From Frondihabitans sp. (GTDB lineage Bacteria > Actinomycetota > Actinomycetes > Actinomycetales > Microbacteriaceae): DNA of 17,567 nucleotides. Location of the stretch: positions 1 to 17,567 of the forward strand of contig JAODMX010000425.1 in NCBI GenBank assembly GCA_025464735.1, read 5' to 3'. Below, in pieces: positions 3,393-17,567 of the stretch. The translations under genes and the position numbers were made by a program. The number at the start of each line of letters is the position of its first letter. Positions within the stretch are counted from its first letter, which is position 1. The notes beneath the pieces were generated by a model. It did no database searches and was not told the origin of the DNA. It saw only the letters and a list, made by a program, of their open reading frames with translations.

Positions 3393-3450
3393 AGTACGGT
3401 TCCGCGCACGAAGTACGTTCTAGTTCGTACTTCGTGCGCGGAACCGTACT
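3393..3450. repeat. Perfect 25-bp inverted repeat with 8-nt spacer
   Basis: Arms at 3393-3417 and 3426-3450 are exact reverse complements around a CTAG-centred spacer. It lies 55 bp after the LCP stop codon. There is no T-run, so a simple intrinsic terminator is not the obvious explanation, and a terminator-like hairpin follows immediately. It could be a palindromic repetitive element, a protein-binding site or a transcription barrier. I found no second copy in the window. Confidence 0.85.
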
Positions 3451-6654: not shown

Positions 6655-6660
6655 AGCCTA
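6655..6660 (-). promoter_or_regulatory. -10 box TAGGCT of nadE (leaderless)
   Basis: On the minus strand TAGGCT is followed by TCAGGA and then the nadE ATG. Three of its six bases lie in the arm of the adjoining inverted repeat. No good -35 hexamer is apparent. Confidence 0.55.
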
Positions 6661-6732
6661 GGGCGCGTCTCCCAATTCCTCGCGAGCGTTGGGCGGCCCG
6701 GATCGCGTGAGGAATCGGGAGACACGCCCTAG
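6658..6732 (-). terminator. Long imperfect inverted repeat between the HAD gene and nadE, likely HAD terminator
   Basis: The arms are about 6658-6688 and 6702-6732. Reading inward from CTAGGGCG, the outer 25 bases of each arm match except at three positions. The distal arm contains the HAD stop codon (TAG at 6731-6729) and the proximal arm overlaps the nadE -10 box. The stem is far longer than a usual intrinsic terminator. Termination of the HAD transcript is the simplest role, but a palindromic repeat element is also possible. Confidence 0.65.
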
Positions 6733-7439
6733 AAGACCGCACGCACCTCCGGATCGCGGAGCTCCTCCAGTGAGGTGATGCGGCGGCCCGGCCAGGTCGT
6801 CTGAGCGTCCATCGCTCCGCTTCCCCCCTCGGGGGTGTAGAGCACCGCGGTCATTCCCAGCTCGGCAGCGCCGGCAAGCTCGTCGCTGCCGCCGTCGCCG
6901 ACGTAGAGGCAGTTGGTCGGGTCGACACCGAGCTGCCTCGTCGCGTGCAGATACATCTCTGGCGCGGGCTTCCGGATCCCGAGGGTGCAGGAGAAAGCAG
7001 AAGCGCTGAAGGCGCTCGCGAGGTCCGACTGCGGCCAGAGCATCGGCACCTCGGCCGAGCAATCGGAGACGAGCGCGAGAGGAAAGCCAGCGGCGTGGAG
7101 GTGTTCCACGAGTGGGAGAGCCCAGGTCGCTTGGAGCAAGCCACCGGTGAACCCCACTCGTAGAGCCGTCGCCTCGTCGATCTGGGTCGCGCTCGGTGAG
7201 GCTCCGAGTCGTTCGGCAAACAGCGCCAGAGTGTGCGGGAGATCGCCGAGTTCGCCGAGGGTGCGCCGGTCGAAGGTGTCGCGGAAAGCGGCCGAGAGGC
7301 CCTCACGATCGACCCCGAGCACGTCGGCGACGGACCGCGAGACGGCATCGCGCTCCTCACGGTTGCCCGAGGGAATGAGGGTTCCGAAGAGATCGAAGAC
7401 GATTGCGGAAGGGGCTCGTCGTCGTCGATCGTCACTCAC
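6729..7439 (-). CDS. HAD superfamily hydrolase
   Basis: The 236-residue product contains the four HAD motifs. Motif I is IVFDLFGTLI, with nucleophile Asp16. Motif II is LALVSDCS, with Ser125. Motif III is the lysine of GIRKPAPEMY (Lys157), and motif IV is YVGDGGSDEL at 179-188. The DLFGTL version of motif I has Phe in place of the second Asp, as in dehalogenase-like and many uncharacterised members, so a classical phosphatase mechanism is less certain. A helical cap lies between motifs I and II (about 25-105). The substrate is unknown. The frame is open further upstream, but GTG at 7439 is preferred: it is preceded by TTGGTC-N17-TAGGCT-N7, the best complete promoter in the window, implying a leaderless mRNA. 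The gene is divergent from the secreted protein at 7550. Confidence 0.85.
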   Translation of the reverse strand: MSDDRRRRAPSAIVFDLFGTLIPSGNREERDAVSRSVADVLGVDREGLSAAFRDTFDRRTLGELGDLPHTLALFAERLGASPSATQIDEATALRVGFTGGLLQATWALPLVEHLHAAGFPLALVSDCSAEVPMLWPQSDLASAFSASAFSCTLGIRKPAPEMYLHATRQLGVDPTNCLYVGDGGSDELAGAAELGMTAVLYTPEGGSGAMDAQTTWPGRRITSLEELRDPEVRAVF

Positions 7440-7446
7440 GGGTTCG

Positions 7447-7475
7447 AGCCTAGGCCGTGTCGAAATGCCGACCAA
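7447..7475 (-). promoter_or_regulatory. Promoter of the HAD hydrolase gene (TTGGTC-N17-TAGGCT)
   Basis: On the minus strand the -35 TTGGTC is at 7475-7470 and the -10 TAGGCT at 7452-7447, with an exact 17-nt spacer. The GTG start follows 7 nt later, so transcription would begin at or next to the start codon. Confidence 0.65.
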
Positions 7476-7549
7476 ACCTTCTGGGGGACAGTGGCGAACA
7501 CCCTGCATCGGGCAAACGCTCACATCACGTCCAACAAAGGATTAAGCAC

Positions 7550-8221
7550 ATGCGCAAGATCACTAAAGCCGGTGTCGGTTTCGCCGCCGCTGGTCTCCTC
7601 ATCGTCGGCGCCGCCGGCGTCGGTGTCACCGCAGCCAGCGCGTCCTCGACGCACCTTGCCGCGAAGTCGTCCTCGATCCCCGCTCCGGAAGCCGCCGTCC
7701 CCGCGATCCTCGGCGGCAACACGTCGGTCGCTCTCGACTCGAACTTCCTTGCCGCACTCAAGAGCCTCGGACTGACCCCATCGGTGGCCGGAACAGCGAA
7801 GCTTTCCGGATCCGACATTTCCTTCCCGATCACGGGCGGCAGCGTCGTCTACTGGAACCCGAAGGGCGACTACCGGCCGTACGTGCAGGGCATCCTCGAG
7901 CACGATGGATCCGGGTTGAACCTGACCGCGGGATCGACCACGGTCACTCTGTCCAACTTCACCATCAACCCGGGAAACTCGCTCCTGTACGGTGACGTCC
8001 TCGTCAACGGCAAGGTCGCCGTCACCCAGGCCGACCTGTTCAACCTCTACGGGGGCACGCTGAAGCCCCTGAAGCTCGAGGGCAACGACGCGATCCTCAC
8101 CGGAACCACCGTGCACATCTCGGCGGATGCCGCGAAGCTGCTCGATGCCACGTTCAAGACCACCGCGGTCAAGAGCCAACTCCTCGTCGGCGTCGCCACC
8201 ATCACGGCCCAGATCAAGTAG
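7550..8221 (+). CDS. Secreted protein of unknown function
   Basis: The 223-residue product starts with a classical signal peptide: MRKITKAG, a hydrophobic core at about 8-24, and likely cleavage after TAASA at about 31. The mature part is rich in Thr, Ser, Gly and Val with predicted beta strands and no cysteines. Segments such as SFPITGGSVVYWNP, GSTTVTLSNFTINPG and LYGDVLVNGKVAV suggest a beta-sandwich or repeated beta-hairpin fold. I recall similar uncharacterised secreted proteins in actinobacteria but cannot name a family. The start ATG is supported by AAAGGA 8 nt upstream. The gene ends just before a strong UUCG-loop terminator, so it is probably monocistronic. An extracellular binding or surface role is a guess only. 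Confidence 0.8.
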   Translation: MRKITKAGVGFAAAGLLIVGAAGVGVTAASASSTHLAAKSSSIPAPEAAVPAILGGNTSVALDSNFLAALKSLGLTPSVAGTAKLSGSDISFPITGGSVVYWNPKGDYRPYVQGILEHDGSGLNLTAGSTTVTLSNFTINPGNSLLYGDVLVNGKVAVTQADLFNLYGGTLKPLKLEGNDAILTGTTVHISADAAKLLDATFKTTAVKSQLLVGVATITAQIK

Positions 8222-8252
8222 CTCGCCCGCGCGAAAGCGCACAACCCGAGGG

Positions 8253-8283
8253 GGCCCGTCGCGATTCGTCGCGGTGGGCCTTT
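8253..8283 (+). terminator. Intrinsic terminator with UUCG tetraloop
   Basis: A 12-bp stem pairs 8253-8264 with 8269-8280 (two G-U pairs) around a TTCG loop and is followed by TTT. It lies 31 bp after the stop of the secreted-protein gene. UUCG loops are exceptionally stable in RNA, so this is the clearest terminator in the window together with the one at 15596. Confidence 0.9.
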
Positions 8284-8301
8284 CGGCGCAGCGACAGACC
8301 G

Positions 8302-8307
8302 TAGGGT
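8302..8307 (+). promoter_or_regulatory. -10 box TAGGGT before the leader ORF and signal peptidase gene
   Basis: TAGGGT is followed by 6 nt and an ATG at 8314. It sits 18 bp beyond the preceding terminator, where a new promoter is expected. No clear -35 hexamer is visible. Confidence 0.5.
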
Positions 8308-8313
8308 GACAGC

Positions 8314-8385
8314 ATGAAGAACTTCCGGCCGCTCCCTGGTCCGTGGCCAGTCACCCGTGTGCCAAGGAAAGGGCTCGCCGAGTGA
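8314..8385 (+). CDS. Short leader ORF upstream of signal peptidase I
   Basis: This is a 23-residue open frame (MKNFRPLPGPWPVTRVPRKGLAE) starting with ATG 6 nt after a TAGGGT box. Its TGA stop overlaps the GTG start of the signal peptidase gene (GTGA at 8382-8385). It is in a different frame from that gene. The peptide is proline- and base-rich with no recognisable domain. The geometry suggests that a leaderless mRNA is first translated here and that ribosomes then re-initiate at the signal peptidase start, helped by the AAGGAAAGGG sequence at 8364-8373. It may be a genuine leader peptide or only a spacer that couples translation; expression is not demonstrated. Confidence 0.45.
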   Translation: MKNFRPLPGPWPVTRVPRKGLAE

Positions 8386-9098
8386 GTGCCACGAGGTCGA
8401 CCGGCCGCTCTGCCGGGCGGTTCATTCGCGACATCGTCGTGATCTTCCTGGCGGCCCTGCTCATCTCGTTCCTGCTGAAGACGTTCGTCGTCCGCTCGTT
8501 TTTCATTCCCTCCGGTTCGATGGAGAACACCCTCCTGATCAACGACCGCATCATCGTGAACGAGCTGACGCCCAAGGTGATCCCCCTGCAGCGGGGCGAT
8601 GTCGTCGTCTTCACGGATCCCGGTGGCTGGCTGGGCTCCGAGGATCAGGTCTCCACAACGTCGACCAACCCGATCGCGAACGGTGTTCAGTGGGCGCTCA
8701 CGGAGGTCGGCCTCGGCACCCAGGACAGCGACGACCACCTCATCAAGCGGGTCATCGGGCTGCCGGGCGATACCGTGTCGTGCTGTAATGCGGCCGGACA
8801 GACGAGCGTCGACGGCGTTGCCCTCAACGAGCCCTACACGAAAGATCCGCCGATCGAGGAGGGCCAGACGCCTCTCGATTTCTCCGTCAAGGTGCCCGCG
8901 GGCGAGCTGTGGGTCGAGGGCGACAACCGCTACGACTCCGAGGACAGCCGCTACCACCAGGGCCTGCCGACGAAGGGCTTCGTGCCCGAGTCGGATGTCG
9001 TCGGTCGCGCGATCGTGATCACCTATCCGTTCTCGCGCTGGCGCTGGCTGGGCAACTACTCCGACGTCTTCGCGAAGGTCGAGCAGAAGGAGCACTGA
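8382..9098 (+). CDS. lepB: Signal peptidase I (S26 family)
   Basis: Signal peptidase I cleaves signal peptides from exported proteins on the outer face of the membrane. The 238-residue protein has one N-terminal membrane segment at about 15-34. The catalytic serine motif PSGSM is at 43-47 (Ser46), followed by the substrate-cleft segment NDRIIVNEL. The general base lysine is in HLIKRVIGLPGD (Lys122), and the C-terminal box ELWVEGDNRYDSEDSR lies at about 175-190. All expected S26 boxes are intact. About 45 residues, including a Gly/Ser/Thr-rich stretch, separate the serine and lysine boxes, as is common in actinobacteria. GTG at 8382 is chosen for AAGGAAAGGG 8 nt upstream and the coupling to the leader ORF. 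An in-frame GTG at 8343 would add 13 residues. It converges on the esterase gene with 41 bp between. Confidence 0.93.
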   Translation: MSATRSTGRSAGRFIRDIVVIFLAALLISFLLKTFVVRSFFIPSGSMENTLLINDRIIVNELTPKVIPLQRGDVVVFTDPGGWLGSEDQVSTTSTNPIANGVQWALTEVGLGTQDSDDHLIKRVIGLPGDTVSCCNAAGQTSVDGVALNEPYTKDPPIEEGQTPLDFSVKVPAGELWVEGDNRYDSEDSRYHQGLPTKGFVPESDVVGRAIVITYPFSRWRWLGNYSDVFAKVEQKEH

Positions 9099-9139
9099 CG
9101 CGCCCTAGCGGGGTGGTCTTCGGCGAGGCTTTCGCGGGG

Positions 9140-10042
9140 CTAGAGGCGGGCGGCGAGAAAGGCGAGTTCGGCGGGGGCGAGGCGGCGCCAGAAATCGAGG
9201 TTGTGGCCACCGGGCACGAAACCGCCGGCAGGATGTGGGTCGAGGCTCGCGACCAGTGCGCGATCGTTGGCGACGAAGCCATCGCCCGTGCCACAGTCGA
9301 TCCGCAGCGGGATCGAGTCGAGCAGCTTCTGTCTCGTCATCAGGTCGTGAGTGGCAAAGTCGGCCGCCCCGTCGAAGGCCTCACTCGCTGCCTGTTCAAC
9401 CGTGGGCCAGAGGGCGACCGACATCGCTGCGATTCCAGCTACCCGGCTGGGTCCCAACTCGCTGCCGACCAGGAGCGCGCCGTAACCGCCCATCGACCAG
9501 CCGAGGAGTCCGATCCTCCGGGTGTCGAGCCCGTGCGTCGCGAGCAGGGGCAGAAACTCATTCGTCACCAGGGATCCGGAGTCGTCGCCAGAGGCGCGCC
9601 TGTGCCAGTACGTGTTGCCGCCGTCGATCGCCGCGATGGCGAAGGGCTTGGTGCCCGCAGTGACAGCCCGGGCGAGGAAATGGTCGAGGCCGAGATGGCT
9701 GCCGAACGGGCTGAGGTGGTTGCCGCCGTAGGCGTGGAGGACGACGACGACGGGCAGGGCATCGCCCGGTTTCGAGCCGGGCGGGTAGCTGACGGCCCAA
9801 CCGACACGTTTTCCGAGTCGGGTCTTCGACACGAACGACCCGCTCAGCATCAGGCCCGTCGCCGTCCGCGGCACGACACCGGGTGCGCCGTCGAGGCCGA
9901 GCAGGCGGAACATCGTCGATCGTCCGGGGAGCACGCGCTGATCGACGGCCAGCGCAGCGGCGCCTGCGACGACGACGCCGGTGGCGCCACCGATCAGTGC
10001 GCGTCGCGTGAGATGCGTGCGAGGAGATGGCTCTTTCGTCAC
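9140..10042 (-). CDS. Tat-exported alpha/beta hydrolase (esterase family)
   Basis: The 300-residue product begins with a twin-arginine signal (LTRRALIGGATG, residues 11-22, then a hydrophobic stretch to about 33), so it is probably exported folded. The hydrolase core shows the strand VVVVLHAYGGNH, the nucleophile elbow GWSMGG with Ser183, a probable acid in IDCGTGDGFVAND (about 248-260) and the catalytic His280 in GGHNLDFW. The pattern resembles the esterase D / Ag85-like / polyhydroxybutyrate-depolymerase-like group, which cleave esters or transfer acyl groups outside the cell. The natural substrate is not evident. The frame is open for 63 more codons upstream, but GTG at 10042 has GGAGG at a 7-nt spacing and puts the Tat motif at the N-terminus. 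A TAGGGT box at 10101-10096 fits a transcript with a leader of about 45 nt. The gene is divergent from the secreted phosphoesterase. Confidence 0.88.
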   Translation of the reverse strand: MTKEPSPRTHLTRRALIGGATGVVVAGAAALAVDQRVLPGRSTMFRLLGLDGAPGVVPRTATGLMLSGSFVSKTRLGKRVGWAVSYPPGSKPGDALPVVVVLHAYGGNHLSPFGSHLGLDHFLARAVTAGTKPFAIAAIDGGNTYWHRRASGDDSGSLVTNEFLPLLATHGLDTRRIGLLGWSMGGYGALLVGSELGPSRVAGIAAMSVALWPTVEQAASEAFDGAADFATHDLMTRQKLLDSIPLRIDCGTGDGFVANDRALVASLDPHPAGGFVPGGHNLDFWRRLAPAELAFLAARL

Positions 10043-10095
10043 TGCGCGACCTCCGGCTCGTGGGGCCTGCGGCTCGGTCGGCGGGCCCTTCAACG

Positions 10096-10116
10096 ACCCT
10101 AGGTTGCGCTGCGCAA
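10096..10116 (-). promoter_or_regulatory. Candidate -10 of the esterase gene next to a 13-bp palindrome
   Basis: On the minus strand TAGGGT (10101-10096) lies about 54 nt before the esterase GTG. Immediately upstream of it is TTGCGCTGCGCAA (10104-10116), a perfect palindrome around one base. The palindrome occupies the spacer between -35 and -10, a position from which a bound repressor would block transcription. No regulator is identified. Confidence 0.35.
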
Positions 10117-10260
10117 GGTGCCCGTCCCTCGCAAGGACGAATGTGGTCATCCCAGCGGCCCAAGCGAGACCCGCGGTGAGCGTCCGAAATGTGCGGCCCG
10201 GCAGCGGCTGGAGGCAACATAAATCGGACACTCGCGGGGCGCGGAGCGAAGAGCAGCCAG

Positions 10261-10282
10261 ATTCACCACCCGTTCACCTTGT
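10261..10282 (+). promoter_or_regulatory. PHO-box-like direct repeat upstream of the phosphoesterase
   Basis: ATTCACCACCC and GTTCACCTTGT are adjacent 11-nt units sharing TTCACC in register. PhoP-binding PHO boxes of actinobacteria are built from 11-nt direct repeat units whose conserved core is GTTCACC or close to it. The site is 41 bp upstream of a secreted phosphoesterase, a typical Pho-regulon target. A degenerate third unit (GGCCCCC core) may follow at 10283. Confidence 0.45.
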
Positions 10283-10322
10283 GGCCCCCGAAAGGGAGGC
10301 ACGCGATTGATAGAAAAGCCGT

Positions 10323-12464
10323 ATGCAGATCATGGGGTTTCTCAAGGGTCGGCGTCGCGCAGTCGCGGTCGCCGCAGCGGTGGGTCTCGCGGCCGCCGGC
10401 GTCGCAGGGGTGTCTACGGCCGCGTCCGCGCACACCGAGCAGCAAGGGACGACGATCACGTCGACCGGTCTCAAGGCGGGTCAGGTCAAGCACGTCTGGC
10501 TGATCATCCTCGAGAACAAGTCGTATGACGCGACCTTCACGGGGCTCAATCAGAACAGCTACCTCTGGAAGACCCTGCCCAGCCAGGGCGTTCTGCTCAA
10601 GAACTACTACGGCACCGGCCACTCCTCGATGGACAACTACATGTCTCTGGTCTCTGGCCAGGCGCCCGAGGAAGACACGCAAGAAGACTGCTCCGTCGCG
10701 AACACCAACTTCGGCAGTGATGCGAGCATCGTCAAGAGCGGCGTCAACAAGGGGCAGGTCGCGTCGCTGGCGAATTCGAGCCAGCCGAGCAAGGCGAACG
10801 CGGCGAACGGCCTGAACGGCTGCACCTACCCGACCGACACCCCCACGCTCTTCAACCAGCTCGATGCCGCGGGTAAAACCTGGAAGGGCTACGCCCAAGA
10901 CCTCGGCAACCAGCCCGGGCGTGAAGATGCCACCTGTGGGGCTCCCGGCTCCGCGTCGAACAACCCCACGACCAACCCCACCTACCTGAGTGCCACCGCG
11001 GCGCACCCGCTGCCGACCGGGGTGACGAGCTTCACGGGGGCGCAGGCCAACGACCAGTACGTCGCTAAGCACTTCCCCTTCGGTTGGTTCGGCGGCCTCA
11101 CGGGCGCCGTGAACAAAGACGGAGGCGTGACTCCCGCGCTCACCAAGCCGGTCCAGGGCGGTACCGACTGCGATGCCAACCACATCGCAAACCTCGACTC
11201 GTCGTCGAACGGTCTGTACAAGGATCTGCAGCACGAGTCCACGACGCCGGCTTTCAGCTGGATCACCCCCAACAACTGCAGCGACGCCCATGACGCCGTC
11301 TGCAAGGGCAATAACCTCTCGGGCAGCTTCACCGCGAGCGGCCAGCCGATCTACCAGAGCGGCACCCCGAGCCCCGAGTCGACCAAGCCGGTCAACTCCA
11401 CCGGTGGCCTCTACGCCTCCGACCTCTTCCTCGAGTACTACATCCCGATGATCGAGAAGTCGGCGGCATTCAAGGACGGCGGTCTCATCGACGTCACGTT
11501 CGACGAGGCAGACCCGCCCTTCACCTACTCCGGCAACAGCTTCAACAACGCGAACGCCTACGGTCCTACCCTGAGCGACAAGGCTGACGCCTCCTCCGGG
11601 ATCGCGGCGGACGTCGCAGGCGAGAACATCAACGGAAAGAACGTCACGACAGAGCCGACCGGCCCGAACTCGACCCTCGGCACCGACAGCAAGGGCAACC
11701 AGCTCTACCCGGGTCCCGGCAACAACTCGTTCATCGACCGTCCGCCGGTGTGCACGCAGACGGCGCCAACGCTCGTTCCAGCAAACTGCGTTCCGGGCAT
11801 CGTCGAGGGTGGCTCGGGAGCGGCTCCCGGTGCACGTACCGATACCGCGCTGGCGAGTACCGCGACCAGCTTCGTACTCGACGACTCGATCGTCGCCGAC
11901 GACACCGGACGCCAGGTCACCGATACGAGTGACACCACCGGCCCCGGAGGCACGAGCCCGATCCCGGCCAACACGTTCGTCGGGACGGTGAGCGACACCG
12001 GGCCAAACCCCGCGGCGAATTCGTCGAGCTCGGTTGTCAACGGCTCGTTCCAGCTGGTCGACCAGGCGGGCAACCCCGTCACCCCGACCGGCACCGTGAC
12101 GAAGCTGACCCTCTCGGCCGAGGGAGCCCCCGGCTATCTCACCGCGGGCGAGACGGCCGACCCGCTCTACGACGCAACCGACGCCACGCCGGGTGGCGGT
12201 GACACCGGCAGCGTGCTGATCAGCCCGCTCATCAAACCGGGGACCGTCTCGACGACGTACTACAACCACTACAGCTGGCTGCGCACTATGGAAGACATCT
12301 TCCAGGTTGACAAGGGCAGCGACTACAAGAGCCTCCCGGCGGGCACGGTCTCGGGCGGCATCGACAACCGTGGTCACCTCGGCTTCGCCGGTCAGGCGGG
12401 TCTCGCCCCCTTCGGTCCCGACGTCTTCAACAATGCCGGGTCGCGGCCGGGGCACCATCGATGA
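10323..12464 (+). CDS. Secreted phosphoesterase (phospholipase C / acid phosphatase family)
   Basis: The 713-residue protein has a signal peptide (MQIMGFLKGRRR, hydrophobic core about 13-32, likely cleavage after TAASA at about 36). The phosphoesterase domain starts with VKHVWLIILENKSYDATF (about 55-72), whose Glu/Asn bind the metal. GTGHSSMDNYMSLVSGQ (about 97-113) bears the probable nucleophile region, and VTFDEAD lies near 391-397. NHYSWLRTMEDIF near 647-659 is the family's closing motif. This family hydrolyses phosphate mono- or diesters, including phospholipids, outside the cell. A Gly/Asn/Thr-rich insert at about 395-560 may be a linker or beta-rich module. ATG at 10323 follows TAGAAA-N6 and has no good Shine-Dalgarno; ATG at 10332 is the alternative. 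Its TGA overlaps the ATG of the lipoprotein gene, implying coupled expression. The upstream PHO-box-like repeat suggests induction by phosphate starvation. Confidence 0.9.
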   Translation: MQIMGFLKGRRRAVAVAAAVGLAAAGVAGVSTAASAHTEQQGTTITSTGLKAGQVKHVWLIILENKSYDATFTGLNQNSYLWKTLPSQGVLLKNYYGTGHSSMDNYMSLVSGQAPEEDTQEDCSVANTNFGSDASIVKSGVNKGQVASLANSSQPSKANAANGLNGCTYPTDTPTLFNQLDAAGKTWKGYAQDLGNQPGREDATCGAPGSASNNPTTNPTYLSATAAHPLPTGVTSFTGAQANDQYVAKHFPFGWFGGLTGAVNKDGGVTPALTKPVQGGTDCDANHIANLDSSSNGLYKDLQHESTTPAFSWITPNNCSDAHDAVCKGNNLSGSFTASGQPIYQSGTPSPESTKPVNSTGGLYASDLFLEYYIPMIEKSAAFKDGGLIDVTFDEADPPFTYSGNSFNNANAYGPTLSDKADASSGIAADVAGENINGKNVTTEPTGPNSTLGTDSKGNQLYPGPGNNSFIDRPPVCTQTAPTLVPANCVPGIVEGGSGAAPGARTDTALASTATSFVLDDSIVADDTGRQVTDTSDTTGPGGTSPIPANTFVGTVSDTGPNPAANSSSSVVNGSFQLVDQAGNPVTPTGTVTKLTLSAEGAPGYLTAGETADPLYDATDATPGGGDTGSVLISPLIKPGTVSTTYYNHYSWLRTMEDIFQVDKGSDYKSLPAGTVSGGIDNRGHLGFAGQAGLAPFGPDVFNNAGSRPGHHR

Positions 12465-13576: not shown

Positions 13577-13646
13577 GCTAAACCCTCGGCGTCGGCCGTG
13601 ACGGTGGTGCTAGGACCACCGTGGTAGCCGACGCCGAGGGTTTAGC
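13577..13646. repeat. 70-bp imperfect palindrome, copy 1
   Basis: Two 32-nt arms surround a GCTAGG centre. The outer 20 bases of each arm (starting GCTAAACCCTCGGCGTCGGC) pair perfectly, four central positions do not, and the inner 8 (ACGGTGGT) pair again. It is 59/70 identical to the copy at 16440 by my hand alignment. It follows the small membrane protein gene and could terminate its transcript, but sequence conservation between copies suggests a repeat family. The rest of the gap to 13910 holds no gene I can support. Confidence 0.9.
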
Positions 13647-13816
13647 TGTCGGCGTGTCGCGGCGCCGCGGCTACGCCCGTTCCGCAATCCTCCGAATTCG
13701 AGTTCTCAAAGCCCGTTTTCAGGCGCATTCTGCGCTCTTTGCTCGACGAGTGTTGTGTGGCTGGGTGCTACAGGCGCGATGCGACTGTATGAATTTCTTG
13801 TTTCGGGGTGCCTCGA

Positions 13817-13830
13817 CCCCCTTGTGGGGG
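13817..13830 (+). other. CCCCC/GGGGG hairpin in the permease 5' region
   Basis: CCCCC-TTGT-GGGGG lies 80 bp before the permease ATG, followed by a small GCGC/GCGC hairpin near 13845. They could be part of a structured leader. No known riboswitch motif was recognised, and I cannot place the promoter. Confidence 0.35.
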
Positions 13831-13909
13831 AGTAGCTTCTGATCCTGCGCGAACTTGCGCTGTGTGCACGTTGCCCGTGTACGCATCTCGACAAGGGGAG
13901 TCACCTCAT

Positions 13910-15577
13910 ATGTCAACACTGAAGAGCCCAGACATCGCACCCACCTCAAGCGGTCTGAAACGGCAAATCGGCTTCATCGGCCTCATGTGGGCATCCGCCG
14001 GATCGATCATCGGATCCGGTTGGTTGTACGGAGCAGACAAGGGCCTCATCCAGGCCGGACCAGCAGCGATCATCTCGTGGGGCATCGGCGCCGTCGCGAT
14101 CCTGGTCCTTGCGCTAGTCCACGCCGAACTCGGCGGCATGTACCCGATCTCGGGTGGCACAGCCCGATTCCCGCACCTTGCGTTCGGCGGCGTTGCCGGC
14201 GCATCGTTCGGGTGGTTCTCCTGGTTGCAGGCCGTTACGGTCTCGCCGATCGAGGTGAGCGCCATGATCGGCTACGGAGCGACCTACGTTCCGTTCGCCA
14301 AGGGATGGATCCGAACGGACGGCACCCTCACCGCCCCCGGCATCGTCGCGGCCATCGTTATCATGCTGGTGTTTGTCGTGATCAACTTCCTCAGCGTGAG
14401 GGCCCTCGCGAATACGAACAGCGCGGCGACCTGGTGGAAGATCGGTGTGCCGGTCCTCGCCATCCTCGTGCTGGCCATCTTCAACTTCCACCCCGGTAAC
14501 TTCGGTGCTTCGAACGGGTTCGCCCCAGAGGGCCTGAAGGGCATCATCTCGGCGATACCGAACGCCGGCATCATCTTCGCCCTCCTCGGATTCGAGCAGG
14601 CCGACCAGCTAGCCGGTGAGTCGGTCAACCCCAAGCGAGACATTCCGCGCGCGGTCATCGGATCCGTGGTCATCGGTCTGGTCATCTACCTGGCCCTGCA
14701 AGTGGTCTTCATCGGCGCCATTCCGCAGGACAAGATTCTCGGCACCTGGGTCGCAACCGGCAACCAGTTCCTCACTGGCCCGTTCGCGCTCGTAGCAACT
14801 GCCGCAGGGATCGGTTGGTTGGCAACGGTGCTCTACATCGACGCAGTGATCTCCCCCGGCGGAACCGGCCTCATCTACTTCACGGCCACCTCGCGCGTCT
14901 CGTTCGGCCTCAGCAAGAACGGCTACTTCCCGAAGATCTTCGAAGCCACCACGAGTCGCGGTGTGCCGTGGTTCGGTCTGATCATCGCCTGGATCTTCGG
15001 CTGCGTCTGCTTCTTGCCGTTCCCAAGTTGGCAATCGCTTGTCGGTCTTATCACCAGTGCTTCTGTGCTCATGTACGCGGGCGCACCGCTCGCTCTCGGA
15101 GCATTCCGCAAGCGAATCCCCGAGGTCGAGCGCCCTTACCGCCTCCCGGCCGCCCACATCCTCTCGCCCATCGCCTTCATCATTGCCAACGAGATCATCC
15201 TGTGGTCCGGCTGGACGACGGTCTGGAAGCTCGGTATCTGCGTCATCATCGGCTTCATCATCATTGCGCTGAATGTCTTGCTCAAGCTCAACCCGACGCC
15301 GGTCCACCTCAACTGGAAATCGGCGACGTGGCTGTTCCCCTACCTGATCGGCATGGGCCTCATCGTGTTCCTGAGCGACTTCAACACGGACCCGACCTCG
15401 GGCAAGCCCGCTGGCCCGCAGCTGATCGGCTTCGGCTGGGACATCCTCGTGGTGGCCATCTTCAGCCTGATCATCTACTTCTGGGCGATCAACTCGGCTG
15501 TCTCGGCCGACACGATCCGTCAGATGGCGGACGAGCAGTCACTCGAGGCCGAGGAGGCGACCACCGCGCTCGCCTAG
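13910..15577 (+). CDS. APC superfamily amino-acid permease
   Basis: The 555-residue integral membrane protein has the amino acid-polyamine-organocation pattern. The helix-1 substrate-binding loop is ASAGSIIGSGWLYG (about 28-40). It is followed by the ELGGMYPISGGTARFPHLAFG segment (helix 2 to 3, about 70-90) and around 12 hydrophobic helices. It has GFEQADQLAGESVNPKRDIPRAVIGS (about 227-252), the conserved loop after helix 6. Such permeases move amino acids or related amines using ion gradients; the substrate cannot be told from this sequence. The frame is open upstream, but ATG at 13910 is chosen for AGGGGAG about 10 nt before it. A strong terminator follows, so it is probably transcribed alone. 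A TetR regulator is encoded downstream on the same strand with its own promoter. The C-terminus is acidic (EEATTALA end). Confidence 0.92.
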   Translation: MSTLKSPDIAPTSSGLKRQIGFIGLMWASAGSIIGSGWLYGADKGLIQAGPAAIISWGIGAVAILVLALVHAELGGMYPISGGTARFPHLAFGGVAGASFGWFSWLQAVTVSPIEVSAMIGYGATYVPFAKGWIRTDGTLTAPGIVAAIVIMLVFVVINFLSVRALANTNSAATWWKIGVPVLAILVLAIFNFHPGNFGASNGFAPEGLKGIISAIPNAGIIFALLGFEQADQLAGESVNPKRDIPRAVIGSVVIGLVIYLALQVVFIGAIPQDKILGTWVATGNQFLTGPFALVATAAGIGWLATVLYIDAVISPGGTGLIYFTATSRVSFGLSKNGYFPKIFEATTSRGVPWFGLIIAWIFGCVCFLPFPSWQSLVGLITSASVLMYAGAPLALGAFRKRIPEVERPYRLPAAHILSPIAFIIANEIILWSGWTTVWKLGICVIIGFIIIALNVLLKLNPTPVHLNWKSATWLFPYLIGMGLIVFLSDFNTDPTSGKPAGPQLIGFGWDILVVAIFSLIIYFWAINSAVSADTIRQMADEQSLEAEEATTALA

Positions 15578-15595
15578 CAACGGCGCACCTTCGAT

Positions 15596-15646
15596 GAAAG
15601 CCCCCACCGGCGCGTGAATTCACCACGCACGCCGGAGGGGGCTTTC
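15596..15646 (+). terminator. Intrinsic terminator of the permease gene
   Basis: GAAAGCCCCC (15596-15605) pairs with GGGGGCTTTC (15637-15646), and the inner CCGGCG/CGCCGG and CGTG/CACG pairs extend the stem. It lies 18 bp after the permease stop codon. The base ends in CTTTC, and the GAAAG/CTTTC symmetry allows function on either strand. Confidence 0.9.
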
Positions 15647-15721
15647 GTCCGTCTCGGCTCGGCGTTAGCTGGGACCGATGCGGAGGGCGCCCTGGGCGCG
15701 GGGGCTCAGGATCCGGCGGTC

Positions 15722-15727
15722 TAGGCT
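15722..15727 (+). promoter_or_regulatory. -10 box TAGGCT of the TetR gene (leaderless)
   Basis: TAGGCT is followed by 7 nt and GTG at 15735, matching the promoters before 7439 and 13109. No -35 consensus is seen. Confidence 0.55.
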
Positions 15728-15734
15728 TTGGACC

Positions 15735-16385
15735 GTGGATGCAGGAGGCGCGCGGCGAGTCGGACGGCCCCGCGACCCGTTCATCGAAGGCAAGCTGCTT
15801 CGCGTCACCCAGCAGCTGATCGCCGAGATCGGCCTCGAGGCGCTGACGATGAACCGCGTCGCCGAGCGGGCCGGAGCCAGCAAGGCGACGCTCTACCGGC
15901 GCTGGGACGACAAGCGATCGCTCGTCCGCGACGCCGTTGCCGCGTTCGACGTCGACACGACGATTCCGAACACCGGGGCGCTTCGCGGCGATCTCGAAGA
16001 GCTCGTCCGCATGTGGGTCAGTCCGATCGGGTATCCGGCGGCGGAGTTCCGGCACGTGATCGCGGCCATCTCGCGCGACCCCGACATCTGGCGGGCCTTC
16101 GACGCGGCCACACACGGCGAGCGGACCAGATCGCTCACGGTGGTCGTCAGGCGTGCAGTGGCGCGTGGCGAAGCGCCGCCGGTGCGCTACGACGCCGCGT
16201 TCGTCACCCGCGCCGTGCATGCGCTCGCGGTGGAGCACGCTGCGCAGCGCGAGTTGCCGCTCGACGAGGCGTTCGTCGCGCGGGCCATCGACAGCATCGT
16301 CGAGCCGATCCTCGGCGTTGGGCGCGACCCGGAGGCTGACGCCCGCGACGTTGCCGCCGGCATCCCGCTGCACGTGCGCCGCTGA
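15735..16385 (+). CDS. TetR family transcriptional regulator
   Basis: The 216-residue protein has an N-terminal TetR DNA-binding domain. GKLLRVTQQLIAEIGLEALTMNRVAERAGASKATLYRRWDDKRSLV occupies about 19-64, with the helix-turn-helix at about 37-58. The C-terminal helical domain (about 70-216) would bind an unknown ligand. It most resembles the TetR_C-containing regulators that begin GRPRDP. The target is not evident. The permease upstream is a candidate by proximity, but a terminator and a separate promoter divide them, and the two are in the same direction rather than divergent. GTG at 15735 is favoured by TAGGCT-N7 and the absence of a Shine-Dalgarno; the open frame extends 19 codons further upstream. 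The stop codon TGA forms the first bases of an 18-bp tandem repeat. Confidence 0.9.
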   Translation: MDAGGARRVGRPRDPFIEGKLLRVTQQLIAEIGLEALTMNRVAERAGASKATLYRRWDDKRSLVRDAVAAFDVDTTIPNTGALRGDLEELVRMWVSPIGYPAAEFRHVIAAISRDPDIWRAFDAATHGERTRSLTVVVRRAVARGEAPPVRYDAAFVTRAVHALAVEHAAQRELPLDEAFVARAIDSIVEPILGVGRDPEADARDVAAGIPLHVRR

Positions 16386-16430
16386 CTGCGGCTGCGCCTC
16401 TGACTGCGGCTGCGCCTCTGGCTGCGCCGC
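16383..16430 (+). repeat. 18-bp tandem repeat containing the TetR stop codon
   Basis: TGACTGCGGCTGCGCCTC occurs twice in perfect register (16383-16400 and 16401-16418), followed by a degenerate partial third unit (TGGCTGCGCCGC). The TetR TGA is the first three bases of the first unit. Because the unit is a multiple of three, changes in copy number would not alter the protein. Confidence 0.85.
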
Positions 16431-16439
16431 CGCGCTGCC

Positions 16440-16509
16440 GCTAAACCCTCGCCGTCGGCCGCGGCGGTGGTCCTAGGACCACCGCGACAGCCGCGTGCGA
16501 GGGTTTAGC
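16440..16509. repeat. 70-bp imperfect palindrome, copy 2
   Basis: This copy has the same ends (GCTAAACCCTCG ... CGAGGGTTTAGC) and a perfect 18-bp central palindrome, GGTGGTCCTAGGACCACC. It is 59/70 identical to copy 1 by hand alignment. Its right half encodes the last residues and the stop codon of the minus-strand nuclease-like gene (16473). Confidence 0.9.
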
Positions 16510-17432
16510 CGCACGAGCCCCGCCGCAAGAAGCCGCCGGCAGAGCTCGTCCGCGTTGCGCGCCACCGTGTAGTCCCACCGCGCGACATCGCGGACCTTGG
16601 AGTGTGCCCGCAGCCGGCCGTCGCGCCGCTTCTCGTTCGTGATCGCATCGCTCGGGGTGCCGCCCCTAAGGAACTGAGGATCGCTGTACTTCCAGTCGCC
16701 GTCAAACTCACCCACCAGCTTGCATTCCTCCCAGTAGAAGTCGACGTGCCCGATCTTGCCGTGGGCATCAATGAACGGCCGCTGCAGCTGCGGCCGTGGG
16801 AAGCCGCGGGCCGCCATCGCCACGCGACTGTAGGACTCGCCGGGCGATTCGGATCCTGCATCGGCGAATTCGAGCGCGGCCCGGGCGGATCGGCGTCGGC
16901 GTGCGTTCGGACGGCGGTCGAGAAGAGCGGCCACGTTATCAATGGACAACGCCTCCGTGTGGAGCCCGTAGTCGAAGACCAGGACGGCGTCTTCGAACGA
17001 GCTGATGAGGGCAAGATCGGCGGCTGTGCGGGCCGGTGTTGTGATCGGTAAGCCCTCCCAGAGCTCGAAGTCACCGGGCTCGAGGACTCCCGGGCGGCGG
17101 TGCAGACTCGGGATTCGGTTGCTCGTCGTGCGGCTCGGATCGATGACGTGAAGATCGGAGGGCCAGTGCTTCGGAACGGGGAACCCCCAGACGGCCGCCG
17201 CCGACCAGTGCGAGACGGCGACGGAGGGTGCGAGACGTTCGGCGCCCGCGTGGACACGCGCCACGTAGCGCTCCCTCGGCGAGAGGCGCTGCCACTCGTC
17301 GGTCGCAACGTAGGCGCCCGGCAGGATCCGGGTCATGATGCCTTTCTCGTGGAGTCGGCGGAGGCTACGGTCGCCGAGACCTGACTGGGTGAAATCGGAC
17401 GTGCGGATGAGGAGTTCGGCAGGGCGGATCAT
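16473..17432 (-). CDS. AbiEi-like N-terminal domain / DUF559-like nuclease-fold protein
   Basis: The 319-residue protein has two parts. Residues 1-150 look like the AbiEi-type antitoxin or transcriptional-regulator domain common in actinobacteria: RSLRRLHEKGIMTRILPGAYVATDEW, then AVSHWSAAAVWGFPVP and GLPITTPARTAADLA. Residues 195-305 have the pattern of DUF559/Vsr-like PD-(D/E)XK folds: Glu199 in PGES, Asp231 in HVDFYW, Glu242 and Asp244 in GEFDGDWKY with Lys248, then NEKRRDGRLRAHSKVRDVARW. All candidate catalytic residues are present, so nuclease activity is possible but not shown. No cognate AbiEii toxin gene is adjacent in the window. ATG at 17432 has no Shine-Dalgarno and no clear -10 box. 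The last 11 or so residues (LNPRTRLSRWS) and the TAG stop come from the 70-bp palindrome copy 2, and a third copy begins 122 bp upstream of the start codon. Confidence 0.75.
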   Translation of the reverse strand: MIRPAELLIRTSDFTQSGLGDRSLRRLHEKGIMTRILPGAYVATDEWQRLSPRERYVARVHAGAERLAPSVAVSHWSAAAVWGFPVPKHWPSDLHVIDPSRTTSNRIPSLHRRPGVLEPGDFELWEGLPITTPARTAADLALISSFEDAVLVFDYGLHTEALSIDNVAALLDRRPNARRRRSARAALEFADAGSESPGESYSRVAMAARGFPRPQLQRPFIDAHGKIGHVDFYWEECKLVGEFDGDWKYSDPQFLRGGTPSDAITNEKRRDGRLRAHSKVRDVARWDYTVARNADELCRRLLAAGLVRLNPRTRLSRWS

Positions 17433-17482
17433 GCCAGCAGGATGCCCGGTATGCGGGCGTGGCCGGGCCCGGATCCGGGAGT

Positions 17483-17513
17483 CTGTGGAGAAGTCGTGCC
17501 CTGTGGAAAGTCG
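17483..17513. repeat. Short direct repeat upstream of the nuclease-like gene
   Basis: CTGTGGAGAAGTCG (17483-17496) and CTGTGGAAAGTCG (17501-17513) differ by one deletion. Both contain a near-match to the reverse complement of a DnaA box (TGTGGATAA). Two weak sites do not make an origin; they could be an operator. Confidence 0.4.
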
Positions 17514-17553
17514 CGCTGGGCGCTGGCCCCGCGCAGCGCCGGGCCATACTGCG

Positions 17554-17567
17554 GCTAAACACTCGCC
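17554..17567. repeat. Probable left end of a third 70-bp palindrome copy, cut by the window edge
   Basis: GCTAAACACTCGCC matches the first 14 bases of copy 2 at 13 positions. The rest lies outside the window, so membership in the family is provisional. Confidence 0.55.

What the first reader, a model, noticed from the sequence alone, without database searches (positions are those of the whole stretch)
13577..17567. A family of conserved 70-bp palindromes in intergenic DNA
Two full copies (13577-13646, 16440-16509) share both ends exactly for 12 bases, share a CTAG-centred core and are 59/70 identical; a probable third begins at 17554. Arm-to-arm pairing is kept while the sequence drifts, as in REP/BIME-like elements. 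Ordinary terminators would not share sequence this way. I do not recognise a described family. Possible roles are a mobile palindromic repeat spread in trans, a nucleoid-protein or gyrase site, or a transcript-end stabiliser.
Basis: partly seen in the sequence, partly recalled or inferred. Interest (0 to 1): 0.7.

Follow-up and report, generated by a model that had tools for sequence, protein, structure and literature searches.

The report
Nuclease genes bracketed by matching palindromes
The two palindromes are copies of a repeat scattered through relatives' genomes, and one of them ends a gene for a predicted DNA-cutting enzyme; in other actinobacteria about half of the sampled genes of this family stand between two such palindromes, each with its own sequence, which looks like an undescribed counterpart of the REP/RAYT system.

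Summary
Copy 16440-16509 contains the stop codon and last 11 codons of gene 16473-17432(-). The cut copy at 17554 begins about 120 bp upstream of that gene, so palindromes bracket it. The protein is predicted to be an AbiEi-type half plus a Vsr/homing-endonuclease-like PD-(D/E)XK nuclease (AlphaFold pLDDT 95).

The layout is general. Of 133 distinct homologous genes, 67 have 40-bp-or-longer palindromes on both sides and 117 on at least one; of 350 other genes in the same loci, 4 have both. Sampled paralogs in one genome carry different palindromes. Unrelated palindrome families share a ruler: an 8-nt motif repeated exactly 19 bp apart in each arm. Solos reach about 28 (Frondihabitans G037) and at least 40 (G003), and abound mainly where the cognate gene is present. 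Empty sites exist in relatives.

Best reading: a REP/RAYT-like system built on an unrelated nuclease, widespread in Actinomycetota. Association, cognate pairing and presence/absence are shown. That the nuclease binds and mobilises the palindromes is inferred. Ten full-text searches of open-access papers listed no description.

The parts
13577..13646 (.). solo 70-bp palindrome between a DUF2269 gene and an amino-acid permease gene
16440..16509 (.). 70-bp palindrome at the 3' end of the nuclease gene; its right arm is coding (last 11 codons plus stop)
16473..16475 (-). TAG stop codon of the nuclease gene, inside the CCTAGG centre of the palindrome
   Evidence: same arrangement in G035 and G037
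16473..17432 (-). 319-aa AbiEi / Vsr-like nuclease gene
16860..17420 (-). [not shown]
16512..16847 (-). Vsr-like PD-(D/E)XK nuclease domain (residues 196-307); invariant E199, R203, Q217, D231, E242, D244, K248, R270 in the 100-sequence alignment
17554..17567 (.). first 14 bases of a third palindrome copy, upstream of the gene, cut by the contig end
   Evidence: full copies in this position in G035 and G037

Best explanation
The palindromes belong to a two-part, REP/RAYT-like system. A chromosomal gene for an AbiEi-type domain fused to a Vsr/homing-endonuclease-like PD-(D/E)XK nuclease sits between two copies of a 60-70 bp palindrome, and further solo copies lie mostly between genes over the chromosome. 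SHOWN: the bracketing, gene-specific (cognate) palindrome sequences, multicopy solos, copy number that largely follows the cognate gene, presence/absence of both gene unit and solos at the same sites in relatives, and a shared 19-bp motif ruler across otherwise unrelated palindromes. INFERRED: the AbiEi half reads the doubled 8-nt motif, the nuclease half cuts at the palindrome (as duplex, cruciform or single-stranded hairpin), and break repair or replication then spreads solo palindromes in trans, while the gene itself moves rarely and stays at about one copy per palindrome family.
For: Bracketing: of 133 distinct genes with enough upstream DNA, 67 have palindromes of at least 40 bp on both sides, 117 on at least one, and 71 have similar up- and downstream flanks, against 4 (both sides) and 2 (similar) of 350 other genes in the same loci. 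Cognate pairing: of 123 proteins, all 45 pairs at 80% identity or more share their palindrome, none of 7228 pairs below 50% do; in between sharing is 0 of 127 at 50-60%, 18% of 68 at 60-70% and 57% of 35 at 70-80%. Sampled paralogs in one genome differ, e.g. G006 and G018. Ruler: the first 12 bases of an arm match those 19 bp further in at 0.595, against 0.22-0.32 at every other lag from 8 to 31 (168 arms); of 64 families, 36 have a strong repeat, 33 of these at lag 19. Solos: at least 40 places in G003, 23 of them aligned with sharp borders, about 28 in G037 and 17 in G035. Co-occurrence: of 7 Frondihabitans genomes, the two with the closest gene are the two rich in copies; in Cryobacterium 18 of 18 gene-bearing genomes have 4 or more matches, 29 of the other 39 have none. 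Empty sites: gene unit absent after the glnA-like gene in G002, G034 and G001 and at the L013 site in G045, G063 and others; solo absent in G045. Position change: the gene stands after glnA in G035/G037 but after a TetR gene in the window, and flanks of that TetR gene in all 7 Frondihabitans genomes hold neither gene nor palindrome end. Enzyme. Spread: 62 of 296 genomes of the phylum; 15 of 29 homologs from these have palindromes on both sides, 10 on one, 4 on none.
Against: No movement was seen directly and no target-site duplication was looked for systematically. The clean-looking empty solo site differs from the filled one by more than the palindrome, and many 'empty' sites hold a different palindrome or terminator. 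The window's own family lacks the 19-bp repeat inside its arms, although the sister element in G036 has the motif five times at 19-bp steps. A second abundant Cryobacterium palindrome family has no such gene in the sampled loci, so not every palindrome family there has this partner. G046 has 16 strand-matches although no gene shows in the listing (truncated) or in four fetched stretches; G087 has copies, with its assembly broken at the element site. 12 of 140 genes showed neither palindrome nor flank similarity. The divergent homologs have no matched control. Gene and palindrome may co-vary simply because they are inherited together.
Confidence: 0.57

Rival explanations
1. Homing variant: the solo palindromes are cut sites, and the nuclease drives copying of its own gene unit (gene plus flanking palindromes) into cut solos by double-strand-break repair; solos spread by other means or are remnants left by recombination between the two flanking copies.
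Against: Among the 17 to 40 or more palindromes listed for G035, G037 and G003, only one pair per genome was seen to hold the gene (G037 has one more pair 850 bp apart with no gene), which is not expected if the gene homes efficiently into solos. Not all gene copies of these genomes were inspected.
Confidence: 0.2
2. Regulatory reading: the palindromes are operators for the AbiEi-type half (autoregulation at the gene, a regulon at the solos), and the nuclease does something unrelated, such as defence.
For: AbiEi antitoxins are known to bind inverted repeats in their own promoter (recalled); the doubled motif at 19 bp looks like a protein-binding ruler; PADLOC AbiEi models match.
Against: The downstream palindrome lies at or across the stop codon (30 of 94 span it), not in a promoter; classified copies lie mostly near 3' ends (27 of 34); copies come and go between close species.
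Confidence: 0.13
3. The palindromes are bidirectional terminators or mRNA 3' stabilisers that spread by ordinary recombination, and the gene family merely tends to sit among them.
For: They are strong hairpins, mostly near gene 3' ends, and terminator-like hairpins occupy several of the empty sites (by eye).
Against: The window copies end in GGGTTTAGC rather than a long T-run; they are shared sequence families, bracket this gene family about forty-fold more often than other genes (67 of 133 against 4 of 350), and are specific to each paralog.
Confidence: 0.1

Closest known systems
REP / RAYT system (REPtrons, REPINs; PMC2817692, PMC3116915, PMC3733652, passages seen)
   Same: Gene bracketed by two copies of a short palindrome; many solo extragenic copies; distinct paralogs each with their own repeat; gene not obviously self-mobile.
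   Different: RAYTs are HUH/Y1 tyrosine transposases of IS200/IS605 type and REPs carry a GTAG tag; here the protein is AbiEi-type plus a Vsr-like PD-(D/E)XK nuclease, palindromes are mostly 60-70 bp with a 19-bp motif ruler, and the hosts sampled are Actinomycetota.
EDxHD / Vsr-like homing endonucleases (I-Bth0305I) and Vsr
   Same: Same catalytic-domain fold by predicted structure; presence/absence of the gene unit at orthologous sites.
   Different: Fused to an AbiEi-type half and bracketed by palindromes; invariant lysine (EFDGxxK) near the presumed active site; no match in 50,697 phage records.
AbiE type IV toxin-antitoxin, AbiEi antitoxin
   Different: Carries an extra nuclease half; no AbiEii toxin gene noticed beside it (not searched systematically); palindromes on both sides and dispersed copies.
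MITEs and TIRtrons
   Same: Small non-coding repeats related to the ends of a gene-bearing unit.
   Different: Each end is itself a full palindrome; no DDE or HUH transposase among the family matches.

Membership tests
REP/RAYT (REPtron) | gene flanked by two copies of the palindrome | tested here: met
   67 of 133 distinct genes both sides, 117 at least one side; in the window the upstream copy is cut by the contig end
REP/RAYT (REPtron) | flanking enzyme is a Y1/HUH tyrosine transposase | tested here: not met
   Pfam and PADLOC give only AbiEi; the confident model is an AbiEi fold plus a Vsr-like nuclease fold over nearly its whole length
REP/RAYT (REPtron) | GTAG tag at one end of the repeat | tested here: not met
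   44 aligned window/Frondihabitans copies and 23 G003 copies have symmetric ends with no such conserved tag
REP/RAYT (REPtron) | many extragenic solo copies of the gene's own palindrome | tested here: met
   at least 40 places in G003, about 28 in G037, 17 in G035; 34 of 39 classified copies outside crude gene calls
REP/RAYT (REPtron) | protein cleaves its repeat | not testable with these tools
   needs biochemistry
Vsr/EDxHD homing endonuclease | Vsr-like PD-(D/E)XK fold of the catalytic domain | tested here: met
   [not shown]
Vsr/EDxHD homing endonuclease | EDxHD catalytic motif | tested here: inconclusive
   invariant E199, D231, E242, D244, K248; lysine where I recall a histidine; not mapped residue by residue
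Vsr/EDxHD homing endonuclease | copies its gene into an allele lacking it | not testable with these tools
   empty sites exist but transfer was not observed
AbiE type IV toxin-antitoxin | AbiEi fold | tested here: met
   [not shown]
AbiE type IV toxin-antitoxin | adjacent AbiEii nucleotidyltransferase gene | tested here: inconclusive
   none in the window (TetR on one side, contig end on the other) or by eye in G035/G037; not searched systematically
Insertion sequence / MITE | target-site duplication | not tested
   no filled and empty pair with clean borders was found

The most novel reading that the evidence does not exclude
Actinomycetota carry a phylum-wide, convergent counterpart of REP/RAYT: several nuclease-palindrome pairs per genome, in which an AbiEi-type reader uses a 19-bp ruler to recognise a private palindrome and a homing-endonuclease-like nuclease copies that palindrome around the chromosome. 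It would be a class of intragenomic mobile DNA driven by a PD-(D/E)XK nuclease rather than a transposase.
Probability: 0.5. Interest if true: 0.92.

Novelty: categorically new. Interest (0 to 1): 0.85.

Why it matters
Homologs of this gene are found in 62 of 296 sampled actinobacterial genomes and where named are filed as AbiEi antitoxin-domain or hypothetical proteins. If they are instead the drivers of dispersed palindromes, a large set of hypothetical genes gets a testable function, and a second, independent origin of the REP/RAYT way of life appears, built on a nuclease. Many private nuclease-palindrome pairs with one geometry would also be a natural collection of specific DNA-reading and cutting enzymes.

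Tried and rejected
Exact-end scans: the window's end pattern was found in 0 stretches of genome contigs and viral contigs. Copies that fit this pattern do exist in G037, so the copy-rich Frondihabitans genomes are apparently not in that collection, which gave only two Frondihabitans genomes; the zero says nothing about the family. Viral contigs: no relative of the protein; phages none, plasmids 2 records with partial matches. Rfam: only a tRNA in the window. PDB by sequence: none at E up to 1. NCBIfam: nothing useful. A strict palindrome finder missed the window copies and was replaced. The site 13577 could not be tested for an empty allele, because DUF2269 and permease genes are not adjacent in G034. 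Looking for a cognate gene of the second Cryobacterium palindrome family gave nothing. At the glnA site G036 and G038 have about 2.0 and 1.7 kb between the two matches, with no nuclease-family hit or palindrome end in the fetched parts; what is there was not identified. The window's genome is not held, so its own copy number and the right flank of the element are unknown.

Rejected: terminators only (gene specificity); chance; one local duplication (copies in relatives).

Rows dropped and limits: the gene set held 141 (80, 60 paralogs, the window); the window's was left out of the flank counts for lack of upstream DNA; 6 places fetched twice and one near-identical gene from another genome were removed, leaving 133. 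still include these repeats (collapses families). Palindromes per genome are lower bounds, since at most 5 to 40 candidates were scored per genome. Gene-bearing Cryobacterium genomes were read by me from the truncated list. Gene calls come from a crude codon-composition finder; one search used 23 G003 copies (2 unclassified), 14 Cryobacterium and 4 Frondihabitans copies, some of them flanking a gene. Structure rows not listed are not evidence of absence.
Full report
OBSERVATION. The two 70-bp palindromes at 13577-13646 and 16440-16509 are real, 59/70 identical (counted), and fold with z -9.4 and -7.6 against shuffles. A third begins at 17554 and is cut by the contig end after 14 bases. No whole genome is held for the window; the closest named homologs of its nuclease are from Frondihabitans, Microbacteriaceae.

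THE GENE. The ORF at 16473-17432 on the minus strand (319 aa) ends inside copy 2: its stop codon TAG is part of the CCTAGG centre, and the right arm encodes the last 11 residues. Homologs share this C-terminus (RLNPRxRxPRWS in P0002 and P0007). Copy 3 begins about 120 bp upstream of its start codon, so the gene stands between two palindromes. In Frondihabitans genomes G035 and G037 the orthologous gene has the same layout, with full palindromes on both sides and the stop codon in the CCTAGG centre.

THE LAYOUT IS GENERAL. I collected 80 homologous loci from named genomes and 60 further paralogs from 18 genomes. After removing 7 repeats, 133 genes had enough upstream sequence: palindromes of at least 40 bp upstream in 90, downstream in 94, both in 67, either in 117; up- and downstream flanks similar (score above 50) in 71. 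Before removal the numbers are 94, 101, 71, 124 and 74 of 140, where shuffled flanks gave 2.6 and 2.0 expected. Of 350 other genes in the same loci, 38 had one upstream, 43 downstream, 4 both, and 2 had similar flanks. A second control, random window pairs in the same loci, gave 0 of 314 above the 99th percentile of cross-locus pairs, against 34 of 77 for the gene. In one search the upstream palindrome begins about 240 bp before the start of the protein match (median), the downstream one 8 bp after the stop (median); 30 of 94 downstream palindromes span the stop codon.

COGNATE PAIRS. Sampled paralogs in one genome have different palindromes (for example G006 and G018). Over 123 proteins (7503 pairs), all 45 pairs with 80% or more identity share their palindrome (score above 0.5) and none of 7228 pairs under 50% do; sharing is 0 of 127 at 50-60%, 18% of 68 at 60-70% and 57% of 35 at 70-80%. 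The six pairs at 99-100% are places fetched twice or near-identical genes. Shared inheritance explains part of this, so pairing is shown but co-evolution is not separated from linkage.

A COMMON RULER. Although the sequences differ, the arms share one geometry: an 8-nt motif at the outer end recurs exactly 19 bp further in. Mean identity between the first 12 bases of an arm and the bases 19 further in is 0.595; at all other lags from 8 to 31 it is 0.22-0.32 (168 arms). Of 64 independent families, 36 have a 7/8 or better repeat, and 33 of these at lag 19 (single arms: 57 of 65). Palindromes beside control genes show a weak excess only (0.373 at lag 19, 44 palindromes). The window's own family does not show it within its arms, but its sister element in G036 carries CCCTCG five times at 19-bp steps upstream and CGAGGGT twice at 19 bp downstream. 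This suggests a protein reading two sites about two helical turns apart; binding is inferred.

SOLO COPIES. The L003 palindrome has at least 40 places in its own genome G003 (80 strand matches; 40 of 63 candidates scored) and none in three other Microbacteriaceae genomes. 23 aligned copies have sharp borders and unrelated flanks. The window palindrome has about 28 places in G037, 17 in G035, 3 in G036, 2 in G001, and none among the scored candidates of G002, G034, G038 and three genomes of other genera. 44 copies, 2 of them the window's, align with a mostly conserved GGTGGTCCTAGGACCACC core and ACCCTCG ends; Watson-Crick pairing is 81.6% against a shuffled mean of 76.0% and maximum of 77.9%. 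With a crude gene finder, 34 of 39 classified copies lie between genes and 27 of these 34 within 100 bp of a gene 3' end.

COPY NUMBER FOLLOWS THE GENE. In Frondihabitans the two copy-rich genomes of seven are the two with the closest gene. In 57 Cryobacterium genomes, the 18 with an L013-type gene (read by me from the listing) all have at least 4 palindrome strand-matches (median 13.5); of the other 39, 29 have none and 10 have 1 to 16. Exceptions: G046 (16; gene not in the truncated listing) and G087 (6 here, 31 with another query; its assembly breaks at the element site). Relatedness among the gene-bearing genomes was not corrected for.

PRESENCE AND ABSENCE. The L013 unit is present at one locus in eight Cryobacterium genomes, a diverged gene (71-72%) stands beside the same right flank in ten more, and others lack it: G045 has 181 bp and G063 121 bp in place of about 1260 bp. 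The Frondihabitans unit sits downstream of a glutamine-synthetase-like gene (named by eye) in G035 and G037, while G002, G034 and G001 have 178, 168 and 354 bp there instead of about 1250, without gene or palindrome end; G036 and G038 have longer, unidentified DNA without them. In the window the unit stands after a TetR gene; the fetched flanks of that TetR gene in all seven Frondihabitans genomes contain neither the gene nor the palindrome's end. A solo at G011:C44 is missing in G045, where 24 bp replace 134 bp between flanks of 89% identity. Against a simple insertion story: the filled and empty solo alleles differ by more than the palindrome, and other species carry a different palindrome at the same spot. 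Target-site duplication was not established.

BREADTH. 62 of 296 genomes sampled across the phylum, G011 included, have the gene at E up to 1e-20. In 29 homologs from the others, 15 have palindromes on both sides, 10 on one and 4 on none (no control run); the 19-bp ruler is less evident there. The protein has no match in the phage records and partial ones in two plasmid records, so the system looks chromosomal.

WHAT IT IS. Anatomy, multicopy solos, private repeats and about one gene per family are those of a REP/RAYT system as described in PMC2817692, PMC3116915 and PMC3733652 (passages seen). It is not a member: no HUH/Y1 transposase and no GTAG tag. It works like one, with a nuclease of homing-endonuclease fold in the transposase's place. 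How cutting would multiply solos (repair copying, replication, template switching) is not known, and the homing variant remains open.

LITERATURE. Ten full-text searches of open-access papers listed no paper whose title or shown abstract describes AbiEi or Vsr-like genes bracketed by palindromes; most listed papers were not opened. A 2025 survey of REP sequences (PMC12306157, term search only) holds none of the words AbiEi, endonuclease or RAYT and has one passage with Actinomycetota. Most subscription journals are not covered, so prior description cannot be excluded.

CHECK. 

Noticed in passing
window 3393-3450 and 6658-6732: Two further long palindromes in the window (25-bp perfect arms; 75-bp CTAGGGCGCGTCTCCC...), unrelated to the family studied; they may belong to other palindrome families.
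   Followed up: no
L276 1355-1465, L277, L330 (Cryobacterium G045, G063, G027): A second, about 97-bp palindrome family (AATTCGACGGAGATTTT...) with dozens of matches per genome and no nuclease gene in the sampled loci.
   Followed up: partly
L218 (G037:C1:1257000-1276900): Five solos about 3 to 4 kb apart; the segments between them map to different places in G035, one of them (7097-11288, 82% identity) bounded closely by two palindromes. Palindromes may mark rearrangement or insertion borders.
   Followed up: partly
L142, L145, L150, L159, L166 (G003): Several copies carry adjoining short tandem repeats of the palindrome's end motif, about 13 bp each (GACAGCGCAGCAC).
   Followed up: no
L282-L284 (Cryobacterium G051, G046, G040): At the site where other species carry the nuclease unit stands a different, nearly perfect palindrome (GCGAGAGCGTAAAAAGTGCCCC...).
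   Followed up: no
L235 about 6956-8220 (G036): The sister element has the same outer motif and CCTAGG centre but a different inner arm (GCAATGCCTAGGCATTGC), which suggests that palindromes evolve in modules.
   Followed up: partly
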